Shown one piece after another: positions 18,306 to 34,569 of a stretch of 35,971 nucleotides of DNA. The translations under genes and the position numbers were made by a program. Every line of letters begins with the position of its first letter. Positions within the stretch are counted from its first letter, which is position 1. Under the pieces are notes generated by a model that saw only the letters and a list, made by a program, of their open reading frames with translations, was not told the origin of the DNA and did no database searches. The stretch spans positions 1 to 35,971 of the forward strand of contig JABWCA010000010.1 in NCBI GenBank assembly GCA_013359345.1, in the 5' to 3' direction. The DNA is from Ignavibacteriaceae bacterium (GTDB taxonomy: Bacteria; Bacteroidota; Ignavibacteria; Ignavibacteriales; Ignavibacteriaceae).

Positions 18306-19124
18306 CTATTTTTTACCCGACCCCTCTGATAGGGAAGGTATATATCCCAGCGCAGTGAGCACCTTTTCAGTTATGGATTTCCTGCAGCCGGGGAAATCGG
18401 GGTTCTTATTGTCTGTGTCTTTTTTTAACCGTGTGGCAAACCAGACGGTATTATCAGCTGTTTCGATATATCCGACCCACCAGCCGGTATCCCTGCCGTC
18501 CACTCTCCCCCATCCTGTCTTACCCCTCAGAACATACCCCGGTGCTTCAGCAGCAATCATAATTTCTCTCACTTTGTCGATGGTTTCAGGGCTGAAAGGG
18601 AGATCTCCCGTCTTTAATCTCTTGAGAAAACTGATCTGCTCAACCGGACTCACCTTAAGCGAACCATCAAGCCAGAAAGAATCAATATATCTGCCTGTGT
18701 TTTTGTTACCGTATTCACACTGTTCAAGATAGTATTTATACTTTTCTGCGGGTATTTTTAACGCAAGTTTCTGATAAACCCATGCGGCGGAAACTCTGAA
18801 CGCCTCTTTCACTGAGAGTTCTCTGTTCCAGTCTTCAAAACCCCTGTCTCTCCCATCCCATTTCACTTTCTCATTTTCATCTTTTACCACCCCTTCTTCC
18901 AGAACAATAAGGGAATTGAGGATCTTAAAGCTAGAAGCCGGCAGCATTTGTATCATGGCATCGGCGCTGTCACTGAAAAGCCATCTGTCATTTTTGGAAT
19001 CATAAAGAGTGATACTCCCTTCAAATCCGCAATCAGTCACAAAACTCTGCGATATCTGCTGAGCAAGAATAATACCGGGGGTAAAATTGAGCAGAAATAA
19101 AAGAACTGCAATTGTCTGTTTCAT
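18306..19124 (-). CDS. class D (OXA-like) beta-lactamase
   Basis: This 272-aa protein has a signal peptide (about residues 1-21, ending ILA-QQ) and all main landmarks of serine beta-lactamases of class D, which hydrolyse beta-lactams in the periplasm. The nucleophile motif is SSFK (64-67, in 'PASSFK'), the YGN motif is at 138-140, the omega-region Trp is W151 in 'FWLDGSLKVSP', and KTG is at 202-204. The second motif, usually S-x-V, reads S-A-A (112-114), so the Val that packs near the carboxylated Lys is replaced by Ala. The length is typical. The gene starts 9 nt after the rsmB-like gene with an AAAGGA ribosome binding site, so the two are probably co-transcribed. It may be an intrinsic chromosomal enzyme; a penicillin-sensing domain is the less likely alternative because no membrane domain is fused. 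Confidence 0.92.
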   Translation of the reverse strand: MKQTIAVLLFLLNFTPGIILAQQISQSFVTDCGFEGSITLYDSKNDRWLFSDSADAMIQMLPASSFKILNSLIVLEEGVVKDENEKVKWDGRDRGFEDWNRELSVKEAFRVSAAWVYQKLALKIPAEKYKYYLEQCEYGNKNTGRYIDSFWLDGSLKVSPVEQISFLKRLKTGDLPFSPETIDKVREIMIAAEAPGYVLRGKTGWGRVDGRDTGWWVGYIETADNTVWFATRLKKDTDNKNPDFPGCRKSITEKVLTALGYIPSLSEGSGKK

Positions 19125-21063: not shown

Positions 21064-21714
21064 TTACTGATTCAGTTTTTTCTTCAGAAGATATGTAAGT
21101 ATGAATGAGAACTCAGGGAGTTTGCCGTTTTCCGGAGTGGCGAGAAATTTTATTTTATTTCGAAGGTCTTTCTTCTTCATCCCGCCTTTTACAGTCAAAA
21201 ACTGATTGAGATAGGTTTCTCGCCTTTTTTTAACTAACCGGGGATGATTCAGATTCAGTTTTTCTATAGTTTTCTGAGCAGATGTATCATTATCCGCCGG
21301 CTTTACAAGTCCTGATCTGGTGTATTCAAATCTTTCAGAGCAGCTTTTATCAGTTGGCTTAACGAAATCAGATTTTTCAGTGTCAGAAGGCCAGTCGCCC
21401 TTGTACCTTGCACCAAATTCATCATCGCTGAAGGCAGCCACCAGATTATTGTATGAAACTGTTTCGGCAAACCTTCCTGCAGCAATACTCACACTACGGG
21501 GAATAAGATGTTCTATGTGGGTATTTCGCTGTAACAGCCTCAACTGCGTGTAACAGCACAAATAAAATTGTTCAGTGATTAATTTATTCCTTAATTCCTC
21601 CTTTTCAGGATTCTGAAGGTAATCATAATTTACAGATTCCTCAGATTGCGCCTTTCTCAGATTAATCCACTTTACAAGTGAGCCGGGAGGAGTGGTTTTT
21701 CGGATGTGGAACAT
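21064..21714 (-). CDS. ptuB: PtuB-like HNH endonuclease, Septu defence (TIGR02646 family)
   Basis: This 216-aa protein resembles the TIGR02646 family of HNH proteins that pair with an ABC-type ATPase in Septu systems and in some retrons, where they are thought to degrade nucleic acid upon phage attack. The core 'HIEHLIPRS' (66-74) is present, with the conserved Asn in 'YNNLVAAF' (88-95). The downstream 'CSERFEYTRSGLV' (125-137) and 'KTIEKLNLNHPRL' (148-160) also fit the family. Two usual features look altered: the C-x-x-C near 'YLCCYTQLR' reads C53-C54-Y-T, and the later CGH/K region reads 'FGARYKGDW' (100-108). The ATG is 2 nt after the ptuA stop, so the pair is translationally linked. The activity of this variant is uncertain. 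Confidence 0.78.
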   Translation of the reverse strand: MFHIRKTTPPGSLVKWINLRKAQSEESVNYDYLQNPEKEELRNKLITEQFYLCCYTQLRLLQRNTHIEHLIPRSVSIAAGRFAETVSYNNLVAAFSDDEFGARYKGDWPSDTEKSDFVKPTDKSCSERFEYTRSGLVKPADNDTSAQKTIEKLNLNHPRLVKKRRETYLNQFLTVKGGMKKKDLRNKIKFLATPENGKLPEFSFILTYLLKKKLNQ

Positions 21715-21716
21715 AA

Positions 21717-22973
21717 TTATCCGGCTGAATTCATGGCTTTCAGATTATTCATTATTGCAATTAACCGGTTTAAAGATGAATCAACACTCTGCATAATTGT
21801 TGTAAGTTCTTCTATAAGCCTGTTTGCCTCTTCAAACTTTTCCTCAGCAATCAGTTCTTCAAGCCGGATATACCTGGCATTGATCTCATTGGTCCTTGAC
21901 GAACTATCCATTATATCTTCAAGTATGGTGTTTGAGTCCAGACCGTAAGATTCATTAAGTGTCTTCCGGTGATCAAGAGAATAGATTCTCTCCGCCTTTA
22001 ATTCACCTATCACCTGAGGGGAGTGCGTAGTACAAATAAACTGGATTTTCGGGAATAGTTTCTGAAGCACTGAAGCAATGATTCTCTGCCATTTAGGATG
22101 GAGATACAAATCAAGTTCATCAATCAGGACGATCCCGGGGGTGGCACTCAGCACATCATCGCCCGCCCGGGGGTTGAGTGTAACAATTCTTATTGCCAGA
22201 TCGCCTGCCAGTGCAAGAATACCCCGTTGTCCGTCACTCAGACCGGAGTAAGGCAGCTCGGTACCGTCGTCTTTTATAATATAAATCTGATTAACTTTGG
22301 GATCATACCCGATATCAGAAAAACCCGGCAGTGCTTCCAGTATCGTCTTTTTCACAATTGAATAGTGCCTGGGTTCCGTCCCTTCCTTAAAAAATGAATG
22401 TTCCTGCCTTCTGAACCATTCTTCAATATCTGAGAGAGATTTACGGGGATCAAGGCACAATGAATAACCATCAAATCTTGAAAATATCTTTTTGTTTAAG
22501 TTCGGAGTCTTGTTCGGTTCAAGCCAGAGCCTTCCGTTGCCATAATAACAAAGCAGCGGCAGTATGATTTCTTCGCCGTTTCTTACCTCATCATCCAGTT
22601 TGCCGGTTATAGCCTGTAATAACTTTGCATCATTTTTGGTTTTCCCGAATGTGGTCTCTCTGTACCTCTTCCAATCCAGATCCTGACCATTCCATTCACA
22701 TAAAATTGAAATTTCAACAGGGATTTGCGGTTCAGTATTTAATGTGCCATTTTTACCGACAGGGAGAACTCTTATATCATTCTTAGCAATAGATCTTGTT
22801 TTCTGGCTTCTGATTCCAAGGAAAAAAGCACTCAGTCCGATTGAAAGAGCCTCAAGCAATGCGGTTTTACCTGAACCATTTACTCCTATGAGTAAATTCA
22901 TGCCGCTTTGAAAACTTATCTCAAAGTGCCCGAATCCTCTGAAATTCTTCAGCTCAAGTTTTTTAACTTCCAT
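21717..22973 (-). CDS. ptuA: PtuA-like ATPase, Septu defence system
   Basis: This 418-aa protein is an SMC/RecF/ABC-type ATPase of the kind found in Septu. It begins 'KKLELKNFRGFGHFEISF', typical for RecF-like ATPases, then Walker A 'GVNGSGKT' (30-37). The ABC signature region is 'LSDGQRGI' (about 244-251). Walker B with catalytic acidic residues is 'VLIDELDLYLHP' (D285, E286), followed by the switch His in 'FICTTHSPQV' (about 309-318). A C-terminal helical region ('IRLEELIAEEKFEEANRLIEEL') follows the ATPase. Its role is probably to sense infection and control the HNH partner, ptuB, encoded 2 nt downstream. No reverse transcriptase or retron RNA is seen nearby. OLD-family nuclease is rejected because no Toprim domain is visible. 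Confidence 0.8.
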   Translation of the reverse strand: MEVKKLELKNFRGFGHFEISFQSGMNLLIGVNGSGKTALLEALSIGLSAFFLGIRSQKTRSIAKNDIRVLPVGKNGTLNTEPQIPVEISILCEWNGQDLDWKRYRETTFGKTKNDAKLLQAITGKLDDEVRNGEEIILPLLCYYGNGRLWLEPNKTPNLNKKIFSRFDGYSLCLDPRKSLSDIEEWFRRQEHSFFKEGTEPRHYSIVKKTILEALPGFSDIGYDPKVNQIYIIKDDGTELPYSGLSDGQRGILALAGDLAIRIVTLNPRAGDDVLSATPGIVLIDELDLYLHPKWQRIIASVLQKLFPKIQFICTTHSPQVIGELKAERIYSLDHRKTLNESYGLDSNTILEDIMDSSSRTNEINARYIRLEELIAEEKFEEANRLIEELTTIMQSVDSSLNRLIAIMNNLKAMNSAG

Positions 22974-23189
22974 TTTACATGTGCTTATTATTAAATTAGA
23001 AAGACCGGTTACAAGACGATTTTTTATGCAGAAATCTGATTTACAATTTACAAAAAGATTAAATCAATTCAGTGTCGGGTAATGAACTTTTGTAATTATG
23101 CACCGGCTAACAGGTATGATCATAAAAAAGGTTAGTGCCTGACTGGCAACACTTTAGTCTGCGTGAAGGGTCTCAGCTAAGATTTGGAT
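22974..23189. other. AT-rich gap upstream of ptuA
   Basis: No gene was found between the argF terminator and ptuA. The minus-strand sequence contains several TTG and TAAT-type words, but none in the TTG-N20-TAnnTTT arrangement seen elsewhere. No strong ribosome binding site precedes the ATG of ptuA. No retron msr-msd-like paired structure was recognised. Confidence 0.5.
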
Positions 23190-23224
23190 AAAAAACAGAG
23201 GGGCTGAGAATATTCACAGCCCCT
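23190..23224 (-). terminator. Rho-independent terminator of glmS-argF operon
   Basis: On the minus strand a perfect 7-bp stem GGGGCTG/CAGCCCC (23223-23217 with 23206-23200) with a 10-nt loop is followed after TCTG by six T (23195-23190). It begins just 12 nt past the argF stop. Confidence 0.85.
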
Positions 23225-23235
23225 GAAATGCGATT

Positions 23236-28815: not shown

Positions 28816-31800
28816 CTATTTTACTTTTGCAAGCTTTTCATCAAAAGTCTTGGTTTTATCAGGGTATTTTGCGACCAGCCTGTAGAGGTAAGTACCGTTG
28901 GCAATTTCGTCACCATCCTGATCGCGGCCATCCCAGTGAATTTTGTTGAAGCCGATAATAAGCTGTGATTTTGGTATATCCATTTCCCGTATCAGACGAC
29001 CGGCAATTGTGTAAACCCTGAACTTCAGTTCATCAGGCACATTTTCACCCCTAAGCTCAAAGGTGAAGTATGTATCGTCCCTGAACGGATTAGGGTAGTT
29101 ATAGACCTGAGCTATATCATCGTTTTCATAAACAAAAAATATGCTTCTGTTGTATGTTGTGTCAAAGAAGTTGTTAGAGGCATCTTTTGCCAGAACATCA
29201 AGTGTATGCCGCCCTTGCTTGAGGGTCGGGGTCCACCTTATCACAGCTTCTGAATTGGGGTATGCCTGATAGCTGAACTGCATATCCTCACGGTTGAAAC
29301 TCAGCGGTTCATTTTTGTAAATAAGCGTGAACTGAGTTGTATCTATCGGCAGCGGCGAATTATCTTTAAGGCTGATCAGTATTTCCGGTTTCTTTGAGAT
29401 GATATCTCCGTTGAGAATTTCCTTCCCGTCAAAAGTTATCCTGAAAGTCGGGTTAATACTGTCTCTTACAACAAAGAAACTATCGGCACTGAGGTTGTTG
29501 AATGTGAATCTTTCATAGTCGGTGGCAGTCACTATCGCCCTGATCTTATTGTAAAATATGATCGGCGACGTGTTAATCACCTTCTGAACAACTGCGAAAC
29601 TATCCGGTTCAACAGCAACTTTCTGACGCACCATCGGTTCGTTTTCATTATTCAGGTACAGTTCAACCCACGCACTGTCAACCTTGTTATAGCTGATATT
29701 ATTTATTCTCACCCGGGCGGTTATATCCAGACCCTGAAGCAGAGAATCGGGGGTGAATTCAAACGCACTGCTGGTTATCTCAAGCTCGGGAATCTCAGTA
29801 TCATACTGGATATTCAGATCTGAAATCACCATCGGGTTCGAAACGGAGTAGGAGGTGTCCTGAAATCCGAAACCCAGTCTCAGATAAGGATATTCTCTTG
29901 GATTAAGGCCGTTAAGATCAAAACCGTTCTGCGGATTTACCTGAAGAGTATCCCACGCCTTTGTCTCTGAGTTGTAACCAAGCACACTCACCGTGTAAAG
30001 AGATGCCGAGTTGTTTACTTTAATGCTGTATGAAAGTTTATTCCAGCTCTGGGCAGGCCCCACAGGGTTTGTTTCAAGGCTGCCGTTGGCATCAAGATAA
30101 TGACCCGCAAAAACAGAAATTTTAGCAGGGAGATTGCTGTTTCTTCTGAAATAGGTTGCGTAAACCTTATCATCCTGTTCGTCATAAACCCAGGCGTAGA
30201 ACCTTAAGAGTTCTGATGGAATCTTTGATTTCCATGTGAGCCAGTCGCCCGAATAAAATCCGTCTTCGAGCCTTACGGCACGCATATAGCCGGAGTAGTA
30301 ATCTTCCGAAATATAGAAGTAGTTATCAACCACAAAGAAACCGGAGATTGATTCAAAGCTTTCAATATTCGGGAATTCATAATCTCTTACAAGAGCCCAG
30401 TTGGCCTGCGGATCAAGCACCCTTATTTTAATAATCTTCTTACCGTTTGTATCTTTTTCCGCAAGGTTATAAGCCAGGTTATTAAATATTGCAACCCTGA
30501 AATAACCATTCTGAACAGTGCCGGTTTCAAAATTAAGCAGCCCTGCATCAATAGTCATGGTATCAAACACCCCGGTTTCGGGATCAATTCTGTGAACCTT
30601 TTTAGGATCAATTGTGGGCGCATACACCTTGCCCTGATAAGCAAAGATGTTAATCCTTAACTGCTCTTCAAAACCCGGTATGGGGCCGTAGTATTCCCCT
30701 TTTACTGTCCCTGAGCCCGGCTTGCCTGTACCGACTCTGTAAATCTTTGACTTTCCGTCAAGCTTATATTTCTGAACATCATACCAGAACTCACCCAGAT
30801 AGAAATATTTGTCATCCATTGCAAAGCAGCTTCTGCCTATTGTATCAAACACTGCAATTGATGTCAGATCAATTTCTTCAATAAGCCTCTCATTTTCAGG
30901 TTTGGGAGGGAGCAGGCTGGTGTTCAGCTGATACCCGCCGTTTTCGGGAGAATAAGTCAGATTGTAAGTGTCAAACATTTTCAGTTGTTCGCCTGATACG
31001 TAATAACCTTCTTTTATGACATTAGTGATTCTGAATGTTCTTATGGTTGTCCACCTTCCGAAATTCTCCCCGTCAAAAACCCTGGCTCTCCAGAAATAAA
31101 AGCCATTGTTAAGCTGAGGTGAACTGTAAGTAAGCATACCATCAACAGCGTTCAGTGAGCCTGATTTTATAAGCGGGTTCTCAAATGAAAGCGAAGTGTC
31201 AATCTCAATTTCATATACGAGATCACGCTGGATATACGTGCCGATATCAGGAAATTCAAATTTCACAATCCCTGACGAAGTCGTAAATCCGTCCGCAGGC
31301 CTGAGAACATTCGGTTCGCTGATATTGAAGACAACAAATGATGTGGTGGCTGAATTATCTGTTAAATCATCCTCGTTAACTCCTGCATCTTCGTTAATTT
31401 CGGCTCTGAGTGTCACGAGTCCGCTCACTCCGGGTCTCCACCCGAAAGTTACAGAATCGCTGTTGGCAAACACCTTAATTCTCTTTGTGTCAATGACTCC
31501 TGATGAATCACCAACCGAGAATGAAAGCTTCACATTGACAGAGTCATCAACAGAGACTCCGTAATTTTTCATTTTTAGCTTTATCTGAAGGCTGTCTGTT
31601 GTCAGGGGGTTTTCAGGCAGCACAGAAATATCGCTGTTCTGTAAGGTGAAATCAGGTTTGCTCGGCAGAGCGAGTTTAAGAAGCGGTTCACCAAGGTATG
31701 TAAGAAGCGCTATCTGATTTCTGTAGTAGCCCACAGGAGGAGTTCTCACTTTCGACTTAAAGAAAGCCTTGCCTGAAACATACTCCCTGTTATTGAAAAT

Positions 31801-34569
31801 TTCATCAAAGAGAAGGCTGTTGTAGTATGTTCCTATCTGCCAGTAAGTTAGTCCCGAACTTCCGAAAAACCCGATGGCGCCCTTGCCGGGCACCTTGATA
31901 AACTGCTCGCCAAAAACATCCTGATTGTCAAAGTGTGCAGTGTAACAGGTAACACTCACTATAAGAGGAAGTCTTCCGCCGTTCTGAAGCGTGTAAATAT
32001 CATTGTTAAGGAATGTGAGATCCCACTGGTAACCGCCGCCGTGTCCGTAATAGTTTGCAAAAACCGCACCTCTGTCAAAAGCTTTTCTGATCTCAAGCGT
32101 TCCGCCCCTGAATGGTTCCTGATCGGGAGCACTCGGGTATCTGAAAATCATGTCTGCATTCAGACCGTTATCACGGAGAAAGTCGGTGTTAAGCCTCATT
32201 GATTCCCTGTTAAACCCGAACTGAAGTTCATCTTCGGCATCAACTCCCGAGGCCATGAGAAGAATATTTTCCTTCCATGGTTTTGTGTTGTCAGAAGGGT
32301 AATTCTCAAGCTTATCAAGGAAGATATTTCCTTCTTCAACCGTTTCAATTGAAATTCTTCCCAGAACCATATCGGGGGTCACATCTTCACCTGTAACTGC
32401 AACAAACCCGTTATCGCTTCCTGCCTGACCATACTGGAATGAGTGGAACGGTATTGATGGCACGAAGTTCTCCCGGCTGTTGGGTAAAATGCCGCGGTAA
32501 TCATAACTCATATCACCTATCAGCACAACATATGAGGGGGCGGGTGACGGGAAATTTTCAAAGGCGTATTTCAGATAGTCTCTGATTGCATAAGGTGACA
32601 TCAGCCCTGCGCCAAACTCATCATAGATCTGGAAAAGGTCTGCAATTTTAATGCGCGGAGAGACAATGGTTTCATCCGGGAAATGCGTCTCCCTGAATGT
32701 TTTCAGCCTCTCTGCAACCTGCATGAATTTTGGATGGGTTATGATGATGTAATCAGCTCCGGCTGAAAGATTCCTCAGGTCAGAACTCTGATCCCTTACA
32801 ATTGAATCAACCGCCGTGCCGTAATTATAATCGATACAGTAATAGTCCTGCGGCTCTGATATTTCATCCTGGAAAAAATTATTCCTGTCTGAACCCGGAA
32901 TGTACATTGTGCTGTCAATAAGCCTTGCCTTAGCGGGGTTAAGCACAATCATTGAATCACCCAGCCACTGGAACAGCCAGTATCTTACTTTACCGGTCTG
33001 CCCCGGAGGTGAGGTAAAGAAATAGCTGTTGCCTGCCACTCTGTTGGTCCGCCAGTAGGTTATCTCATAGCTGTTTATACGTATCTCATCATTTTTCGGG
33101 TTGAGGCACACATTGCCGTCAAGAACCACGGTCATCTGGTTTCCGCTGCTCGGGATCGGAACCGTGTCAACCGAAAAGGTTTTATCGAAGACATAGTTAT
33201 CCTGCCCGTTCCACTTTGCGTTCCCGATAAGATTATCATTGATAAATATGTTGGCGCTGTGCTGATAGTTACAGGGGTATATTGATGTTGTAAGGCTGTG
33301 CATGTTCACCTTGAGCCTGACATCTTTTATATTCGTGTTAAACTGTGGCAGTGTTTCAAATCTGTGCCCGAAGCCGAGATCCTGAACTCCGTTTCTGGCA
33401 TTGGCCTTACCCCAGTACCAGTAATCCCTGCGCTCATCGTTAGCGTATCCGAACCTCTCATAGATCAGATCTTCTTCGAACTTGAGCGTTACGGGAACGG
33501 TCTGAACTGTCGACTGATAATCAGTCGGGAACCCCGATCTTCTCTGATAGTGAAATCCCGAAGTATCGGCCTGATATGAAAACCAGTAAACATTTGACTT
33601 GTTGTAAATGTTAAGACCGGCGTAAGGACTCGGGGTGGCAGGCTTCCCTACAAAATAGAAGAAATCGGTTCCGTTAAAAACACTGTCACCGTTATCAACC
33701 ACGTGAATCGGCACGGGCAAGCCGTCATTAAACATTTCAAGTTTATGGATTCTCACTCCGCCGGTAAGCGGCACTCCCGCATCAACAAGCTCCTGATAGC
33801 TAACCCTGAACACATCTTTTTTATTGACATAGATCTTAAACCAGTCTTTTGAAGGGTTATACCAGTAGCCCGTGAGTTTGGCTGCAGCATCAGAATTCAC
33901 TGCTTTTGCCTTGCCGTAAAACTTCATTGCCGATTTATGATTCACAAGCGATGTGGCTATCATCTCTTCTGTGAGAGGGTCCTTAATATTTTCAACCGTG
34001 ATTCCCGATGTGAAATCATATTTATATTTCAGCTCAAACACCACTTTTGTAAGAAGTGTAAGCTCCCTGTTCACAGGGTTAAACCGGGCGGGATTAATTT
34101 TAATGTTCTGAATTAATGCAAAACGCATCGTGGAGAGATTGTTCAGTTCAACGAACTGTTTTGGGTAGTCTGAATTACTGTAATAAATATCACGGTCAAA
34201 ATAATCGTAAATCTTCTCTTCAGAGCCGTATTCGGTTGCCGGCTCAGGCATTATAAAAACATTCCCCTGCTTTTTAATTTCTGTGCTGATAACCGAAAGC
34301 TCAACCTTCCTGTTGAAAGGAATACCTGCCGTGAGGAAGAACTCAGGGAGCAGCGGCTTGCCGGGTTCCGCATAAATGTAACTGTCAGGGATTATCTTCT
34401 GGTAGGTGTTCCCCGCAACCGTTGTATCGGTCACCCTGTAAACCCCTGTAAAATCCACCTGAATCTTTACAGAATTTTCATCTTCGCTCAGCACTTTAAT
34501 CTGCTGAGAAAAGGTAACAGACATAAAAATAAATGTGAGGATTGTTATTTGCAGGAAGAAATATTTCAT
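28816..34569 (-). CDS. porU: PorU-like C25 (gingipain-family) protease, type IX secretion
   Basis: This 1917-aa secreted protein has a signal peptide (about 1-20), a long N-terminal PorU-like region (about 25-600), a C25 cysteine peptidase domain (about 609-970) with catalytic His843 in 'YYGHGGG' and Cys875 in 'VTCYTAHFD', a CARDB-like Ig domain (about 980-1085), an Fn3-like domain (about 1087-1180), a long repeat-poor beta-rich region (about 1185-1490), further Ig-like domains, and a terminal 'YNYPNPF' sorting-type module (about 1822-1917) ending in a 'GTYLYRLVAK' strand. PorU is the sortase that removes C-terminal signals of type IX cargo and links cargo to the surface. Typical PorU is about 1,100-1,300 aa, so this one carries several hundred extra residues. 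A cargo protease of the same family is the main alternative. It has its own terminator. Confidence 0.8.
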   Translation of the reverse strand: MKYFFLQITILTFIFMSVTFSQQIKVLSEDENSVKIQVDFTGVYRVTDTTVAGNTYQKIIPDSYIYAEPGKPLLPEFFLTAGIPFNRKVELSVISTEIKKQGNVFIMPEPATEYGSEEKIYDYFDRDIYYSNSDYPKQFVELNNLSTMRFALIQNIKINPARFNPVNRELTLLTKVVFELKYKYDFTSGITVENIKDPLTEEMIATSLVNHKSAMKFYGKAKAVNSDAAAKLTGYWYNPSKDWFKIYVNKKDVFRVSYQELVDAGVPLTGGVRIHKLEMFNDGLPVPIHVVDNGDSVFNGTDFFYFVGKPATPSPYAGLNIYNKSNVYWFSYQADTSGFHYQRRSGFPTDYQSTVQTVPVTLKFEEDLIYERFGYANDERRDYWYWGKANARNGVQDLGFGHRFETLPQFNTNIKDVRLKVNMHSLTTSIYPCNYQHSANIFINDNLIGNAKWNGQDNYVFDKTFSVDTVPIPSSGNQMTVVLDGNVCLNPKNDEIRINSYEITYWRTNRVAGNSYFFTSPPGQTGKVRYWLFQWLGDSMIVLNPAKARLIDSTMYIPGSDRNNFFQDEISEPQDYYCIDYNYGTAVDSIVRDQSSDLRNLSAGADYIIITHPKFMQVAERLKTFRETHFPDETIVSPRIKIADLFQIYDEFGAGLMSPYAIRDYLKYAFENFPSPAPSYVVLIGDMSYDYRGILPNSRENFVPSIPFHSFQYGQAGSDNGFVAVTGEDVTPDMVLGRISIETVEEGNIFLDKLENYPSDNTKPWKENILLMASGVDAEDELQFGFNRESMRLNTDFLRDNGLNADMIFRYPSAPDQEPFRGGTLEIRKAFDRGAVFANYYGHGGGYQWDLTFLNNDIYTLQNGGRLPLIVSVTCYTAHFDNQDVFGEQFIKVPGKGAIGFFGSSGLTYWQIGTYYNSLLFDEIFNNREYVSGKAFFKSKVRTPPVGYYRNQIALLTYLGEPLLKLALPSKPDFTLQNSDISVLPENPLTTDSLQIKLKMKNYGVSVDDSVNVKLSFSVGDSSGVIDTKRIKVFANSDSVTFGWRPGVSGLVTLRAEINEDAGVNEDDLTDNSATTSFVVFNISEPNVLRPADGFTTSSGIVKFEFPDIGTYIQRDLVYEIEIDTSLSFENPLIKSGSLNAVDGMLTYSSPQLNNGFYFWRARVFDGENFGRWTTIRTFRITNVIKEGYYVSGEQLKMFDTYNLTYSPENGGYQLNTSLLPPKPENERLIEEIDLTSIAVFDTIGRSCFAMDDKYFYLGEFWYDVQKYKLDGKSKIYRVGTGKPGSGTVKGEYYGPIPGFEEQLRINIFAYQGKVYAPTIDPKKVHRIDPETGVFDTMTIDAGLLNFETGTVQNGYFRVAIFNNLAYNLAEKDTNGKKIIKIRVLDPQANWALVRDYEFPNIESFESISGFFVVDNYFYISEDYYSGYMRAVRLEDGFYSGDWLTWKSKIPSELLRFYAWVYDEQDDKVYATYFRRNSNLPAKISVFAGHYLDANGSLETNPVGPAQSWNKLSYSIKVNNSASLYTVSVLGYNSETKAWDTLQVNPQNGFDLNGLNPREYPYLRLGFGFQDTSYSVSNPMVISDLNIQYDTEIPELEITSSAFEFTPDSLLQGLDITARVRINNISYNKVDSAWVELYLNNENEPMVRQKVAVEPDSFAVVQKVINTSPIIFYNKIRAIVTATDYERFTFNNLSADSFFVVRDSINPTFRITFDGKEILNGDIISKKPEILISLKDNSPLPIDTTQFTLIYKNEPLSFNREDMQFSYQAYPNSEAVIRWTPTLKQGRHTLDVLAKDASNNFFDTTYNRSIFFVYENDDIAQVYNYPNPFRDDTYFTFELRGENVPDELKFRVYTIAGRLIREMDIPKSQLIIGFNKIHWDGRDQDGDEIANGTYLYRLVAKYPDKTKTFDEKLAKVK

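What the first reader, a model, noticed from the sequence alone, without database searches (positions are those of the whole stretch)
21064..22973. Septu-like PtuAB pair with an HNH protein lacking standard Cys/His positions
The ATPase is intact (Walker A, Walker B, signature, switch His). The HNH partner keeps HIEHLIP, the Asn and the C-terminal family motifs. However, the usual first C-x-x-C reads C-C-Y-T and the later CGH-type site reads FGAR. Either a zinc-free HNH variant has evolved or the nuclease is impaired. No reverse transcriptase or retron RNA is near, so this would be a stand-alone Septu. It is inserted next to housekeeping genes with no visible mobile element.
Basis: partly seen in the sequence, partly recalled or inferred. 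Interest (0 to 1): 0.6.

Follow-up and report, generated by a model that had tools for sequence, protein, structure and literature searches.

The report
Stand-alone Septu defence, zinc-free nuclease type
This is an ordinary two-gene bacterial anti-virus system (Septu) whose DNA/RNA-cutting protein lacks the usual zinc-holding cysteines, a feature it shares with its relatives, including the E. coli Septu protein of known structure, so it is probably neither broken nor unique.

Summary
Two adjacent intact genes, ptuA (21717-22973, -) and ptuB (21064-21714, -), encode a stand-alone Septu pair in an Ignavibacteriales-like genome. The closest solved proteins are E. coli Septu PtuA and PtuB (8ee4/8ee7/8eea), ahead of retron PtuAB. 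It is not an oddity of this gene. Both close relatives (45-49% identity), homologs from Ketogulonicigenium, Bacteroides and other genomes, and the E. coli Septu PtuB have the same T/S-for-Cys and G-for-Cys swap. In 63 core PtuB sequences the site is nearly all-or-none: 47 have C56, C95 and C101 together; 14 lack C56 and C101 (one truncated), and all of these lack C95. C53, E/D68 and His69 never change; N90 almost never. An AlphaFold model (mean pLDDT 94) best matches E. coli Septu PtuB. So this is most likely a functional zinc-knuckle-free HNH nuclease of a recognised PtuB type, not an impaired enzyme. One loss of the knuckle or three is unresolved (AU p 0.07-0.11). No reverse transcriptase or known retron RNA is near. 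New member of a known kind; modest interest.

The parts
21717..22973 (-). ptuA: ABC/SMC-type ATPase of Septu, 418 aa, intact Walker A (K36), signature LSDGQ, Walker B IVLIDE, switch His TTHSP
   Evidence: PADLOC PtuA1 E 1.3e-120; best solved relative 8ee4 E. coli PtuA E 4.9e-48
21064..21714 (-). ptuB: TIGR02646/PtuB HNH nuclease, 216 aa, knuckle-less type (C53, T56, F95, G101), catalytic E68/H69/N90 intact
   Evidence: PADLOC PtuB1 E 2.8e-48; TIGR02646 65.7 bits against cut-off 52.15; model pLDDT 93.9, best PDB match 8eea_G
21547..21558 (-). codons of C53-C54-Y55-T56: first half of the former zinc knuckle, second Cys replaced by Thr
   Evidence: alignment of relatives
21499..21519 (-). codons of H66-I-E-H-L-I-P72: HNH catalytic motif, E68 and H69
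   Evidence: H69 in all 92 and E/D68 in all 92 homologs aligned
21406..21417 (-). codons of F100-G-A-R103: second half of the former zinc knuckle, Cys replaced by Gly101
22974..23235 (-). 262-nt intergenic region upstream of ptuA, presumed to hold the promoter; no Rfam match
   Evidence: the consensus promoter matches of the region are no more than chance gives

Best explanation
A stand-alone Septu anti-phage system. PtuA, an SMC/ABC-type ATPase, is expected to assemble into an oligomer that carries and restrains PtuB, an HNH nuclease; a change caused by phage infection releases cutting of nucleic acid and stops phage growth. PtuB belongs to a PtuB type that has dropped its structural zinc knuckle (positions 56, 95 and 101 changed together) but keeps the HNH active site (E68, H69, N90). 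It most likely folds and cuts without that structural zinc, using a divalent metal at the active site. Shown here: gene identity, intact motifs, near all-or-none change of the zinc positions across the family, and a confident predicted fold. Inferred: the complex, its activity, its target (phage DNA or a host tRNA) and its trigger.
For: Family matches for both proteins. The closest solved relatives are E. coli stand-alone Septu PtuA (E 4.9e-48) and PtuB (E 1.3e-8), ahead of retron PtuA and PtuB. The AlphaFold model of PtuB has mean pLDDT 93.9; residues 51-60 average 97, 91-100 average 94 and 101-110 average 84. Its best PDB match is 8eea_G, E. coli Septu, at E 6e-10 and TM 0.74. Relatives at 49% and 45% identity share CCYT/CGYT and FGAR/FGAV with E68, H69 and N90 invariant. 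E. coli PtuB 8ee7 reads CCYS and FGGH. Among 63 core homologs, 47 have C56, C95 and C101 and 14 lack C56 and C101, Fisher p 6e-12 (relatedness not corrected); H69 is 63/63. Published work reports that Septu PtuAB of E. coli ATCC 25922 targets nicked DNA (PMC11555353), and that in another E. coli Septu both the PtuA Walker and the PtuB H/N residues are needed for defence, with tRNA-Tyr cleaved (PMC13096335).
Against: No experiment exists on this pair. Position 103, often H, N, D or T in relatives, is R here and in L002, and V in L003, so a possible third metal ligand may be missing in this lineage. No homolog closer than 49% was found, so selection on this gene itself could not be measured. That 8ee7 is the ATCC 25922 protein is an inference from the literature and PDB titles; the structure paper is not held.
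Confidence: 0.85

Rival explanations
1. The HNH protein is catalytically impaired in this lineage (loss of the knuckle and of the H/N at position 103), so the locus is a decaying or purely binding Septu.
For: R103/R103/V103 in the three Ignavibacterial proteins instead of H/N/D/T. Broken Septu loci do occur elsewhere: a truncated knuckle-less PtuB in L020, a frameshifted ptuA in E. coli L150, a broken ptuB in Salmonella L146.
Against: The reading frame is intact, E68/H69/N90 and the family C-terminal motifs are kept across three genera at 45-49% identity, position 103 is also variable in PtuBs that keep all four cysteines, and the fold prediction is confident.
Confidence: 0.08
2. A retron I-A or similar system with the reverse transcriptase missed or on another contig.
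For: NCBI names the family after retrons, and PADLOC retron I-A models match, more weakly than Septu models.
Against: No reverse transcriptase next to the pair; the genome's only RVT_1 protein is on contig C181 and looks like a group II intron protein. The query scores below the retron PtuA/PtuB cut-offs. Retron-linked PtuBs found here all have the four cysteines (L046, L048, L049, L149).
Confidence: 0.02
3. Zinc is still bound, by a different set of ligands (for example C53, C54, C125, H66).
For: C53 is invariant even where the other three cysteines are gone, and H66 is His in every knuckle-less core PtuB.
Against: C54 is A or G in many knuckle-less relatives and C125 is absent in L016, L022 and L042, so no conserved alternative set of four exists.
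Confidence: 0.05

Closest known systems
E. coli stand-alone Septu PtuAB (PDB 8ee4, 8ee7, 8eea)
   Same: Two-gene system, short PtuA without an RT, knuckle-less PtuB (CCYS ... FGGH), best sequence and fold match
   Different: PtuB only about 24% identical in the fold alignment; position 103 is H there and R here; oligomeric state here unknown
Retron Ec78/Eco7 and Ec83 PtuAB (9vh1, 9nnb, 9e8z)
   Same: Same ATPase and HNH families and fold
   Different: They have an RT and msDNA, a longer PtuA (about 550 aa) and, in the retron-linked PtuBs read here, the four-cysteine knuckle
Ketogulonicigenium vulgare plasmid PtuAB (L039)
   Same: Knuckle-less PtuB with YGAH and WPS motifs, joins the query clade in both trees
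   Different: Lies between type I restriction-modification genes

Membership tests
Septu (PtuA/PtuB) | Adjacent ABC/SMC-type ATPase gene and TIGR02646-type HNH gene | tested here: met
Septu (PtuA/PtuB) | PtuA Walker A, signature, Walker B, switch His | tested here: met
   sequence and alignment to 8ee4
Septu (PtuA/PtuB) | PtuB HNH catalytic residues (E/D-H and N) | tested here: met
   E68, H69, N90 conserved
Septu (PtuA/PtuB) | PtuA-PtuB complex with ATP-controlled nuclease and anti-phage activity | not testable with these tools
   needs protein and phage assays
Retron I-A (Ec78-like) | Reverse transcriptase and msr-msd RNA beside ptuAB | tested here: not met
   no RT nearby; no Rfam match, though Rfam need not hold every retron RNA
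Retron Ec78 PtuA/PtuB (NF041760, NF041761) | Score above NCBI equivalog cut-offs | tested here: not met
   254.5 against 500 and 71.9 against 150 bits
TIGR02646 HNH subfamily | Score above curated cut-off | tested here: met
   65.7 against 52.15 bits
Zinc-knuckle HNH nucleases | Four cysteines (53, 56, 95, 101) | tested here: not met
   only C53 remains

The most novel reading that the evidence does not exclude
PtuB nucleases lost their structural zinc knuckle as a unit, possibly three separate times and always toward Thr/Ser56 and Gly101, in stand-alone Septu and not in retron Septu. This would give a zinc-independent class of HNH effectors whose stability or activation comes instead from PtuA or from the active-site metal.
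Probability: 0.3. Interest if true: 0.45.

Novelty: new member of a known kind. Interest (0 to 1): 0.3.

Why it matters
It indicates that the missing cysteines mark a natural, widespread PtuB type rather than a dead nuclease, so annotation by Cys/His count would wrongly call such systems inactive. The nearly all-or-none knuckle in one family gives natural pairs for asking what structural zinc does for an HNH effector.

Tried and rejected
Retron reading: rejected. Alternative zinc ligands: no conserved set. Single origin of knuckle loss: trees need three changes in both builds, but the AU test does not reject one clade (p 0.07; p 0.11), so left open; the shared FGA/FGG motif argues for one origin. 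Mobile-element signs: no tRNA or convincing flanking repeats, and only slightly low GC. Viral-contig scans with the query alignment and with E. coli PtuB found no relatives. The genome-contig scan gave only one relative. The E. coli Septu and Eco7 structure papers are not held, and no held paper found discusses the PtuB zinc site. Atomic coordinates of the model were not available, so geometry at the former zinc site could not be measured.

Full report
Observation. The finding's coordinates hold two intact minus-strand genes, ptuA 21717-22973 and ptuB 21064-21714, 2 nt apart. PADLOC gives PtuA1 at E 1.3e-120 and PtuB1 at E 2.8e-48. TIGR02646 is above its cut-off, while the retron Ec78 equivalog models are well below theirs.

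Surroundings. Upstream of ptuA lie, in order, otc, arcC, a cyclic-2,3-diphosphoglycerate-synthetase-like gene (arcC and this one named from their sequence, not tested) and glmS. Downstream lies a convergent M15 peptidase gene, then rsmB/F, and further on mraW and mraZ. In ten relatives the otc region was read: arcC is next to otc in nine, the full glmS-cPGS-arcC-otc run is present in seven, and none has ptuA or ptuB there. So the pair sits at the end of a conserved operon and is lineage-specific at this place. Related PtuBs were found in only 6 of 391 genomes of the class, which fits a patchy defence gene. No tRNA and no convincing flanking repeat was seen. Not every ORF of the window was identified.

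Not a retron. The genome held has one RVT_1 protein, on contig C181; it looks like a group II intron protein. Rfam finds nothing in the window.

The zinc site. Relatives were collected from the phylum, class, plasmids, phage records, viral contigs and E. coli. In 38 aligned PtuBs, T/S at position 56 always goes with G at 101 (11 of 11) and C56 always with C101 (27 of 27). In a wider set of 63 core sequences, 47 have C56, C95 and C101. Fourteen lack C56 and C101, including one truncated protein, and all fourteen lack C95. The exceptions are L052, where the alignment has a gap, and L103, which lacks C56 only. C53 is present in all 63, H69 in all 63, E or D at 68 in all 63 and N90 in 61. The Fisher p of 6e-12 ignores relatedness. 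Among more distant HNH proteins partial losses also occur (L105, L108, L119, L120), and L109 looks fully knuckle-less. That positions 53, 56, 95 and 101 are the zinc ligands follows from general knowledge of HNH folds (CxxC ... CxxC); no zinc site was seen in coordinates here.

Close kin and known structures. The two nearest relatives (49% and 45%) read CCYT/FGAR and CGYT/FGAV. E. coli Septu PtuB of PDB 8ee7 reads CCYS and FGGH, and DNA similar to a gene of this type is found in 90 of 5426 E. coli genomes. The query is therefore typical of its kind. Retron-linked PtuBs with an RT beside them in the fetched loci (L046, L048, L049, L149) all have the four cysteines; the sample is small.

Origin of the trait. 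With the three zinc columns removed, two trees need three changes between the states, and starred branches force three, but the AU test does not reject a single clade (p 0.0706 and 0.11). One to three losses remain possible.

Fold. The AlphaFold model of PtuB, from 36 window and locus sequences, has mean pLDDT 93.9 and pTM 0.89. The regions of the former knuckle are confident (blocks 51-60: 97, 91-100: 94, 101-110: 84). Foldseek ranks E. coli Septu PtuB first (E 6.2e-10, TM 0.74), then retron PtuBs.

Mechanism. By homology, PtuA is an ATPase scaffold and PtuB its nuclease. Published work reports that E. coli ATCC 25922 Septu targets nicked DNA (PMC11555353), that another E. coli Septu cuts tRNA-Tyr and needs the PtuA Walker and PtuB H/N residues (PMC13096335), and that the E. 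coli complex is 6:2 (table in PMC12948488). Which target applies here is unknown. That the query works without structural zinc is inferred from family conservation and the fold, not measured.

Verdict. Observation confirmed; interpretation partly supported. It is a stand-alone Septu of a knuckle-free PtuB type, most likely functional: a new member of a known kind, of modest interest.

Noticed in passing
window 18306-19124 (-): 272-aa protein with a transpeptidase domain (PF00905, E 9.8e-37) and SSFK and KTGW motifs, resembling a class D (OXA-like) beta-lactamase, next to rsmB/F.
   Followed up: partly
window 28816-34569 (-): 1917-aa protein with a gingipain-like C25 peptidase domain and propeptide.
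   Followed up: no
L042 1142-2992: Natural fusion of PtuA and a knuckle-less PtuB in one 616-aa protein on a Phocaeicola vulgatus plasmid; a closely similar PtuB is a separate gene in Bacteroides thetaiotaomicron (L147).
   Followed up: partly
L039 1243-3187: Ketogulonicigenium PtuAB lies inside a type I restriction-modification operon, between the S and R genes; a Rhizobium PtuAB (L148) lies between a helicase gene and a DUF1156 gene.
   Followed up: no
L020, L146, L150: Broken Septu loci: truncated PtuB beside an intact PtuA (L020), disrupted ptuB in Salmonella (L146), frameshifted ptuA in an E. coli strain (L150).
   Followed up: no
L144 2570-3391 (contig C181 of the window's genome): Short reverse transcriptase, 273 aa, resembling a group II intron protein; the only RVT_1 hit in the genome.
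   Followed up: partly
L109, L105, L108, L119, L120: More distant HNH proteins of the same superfamily with full or partial loss of the zinc cysteines, suggesting the knuckle is lost repeatedly.
   Followed up: partly
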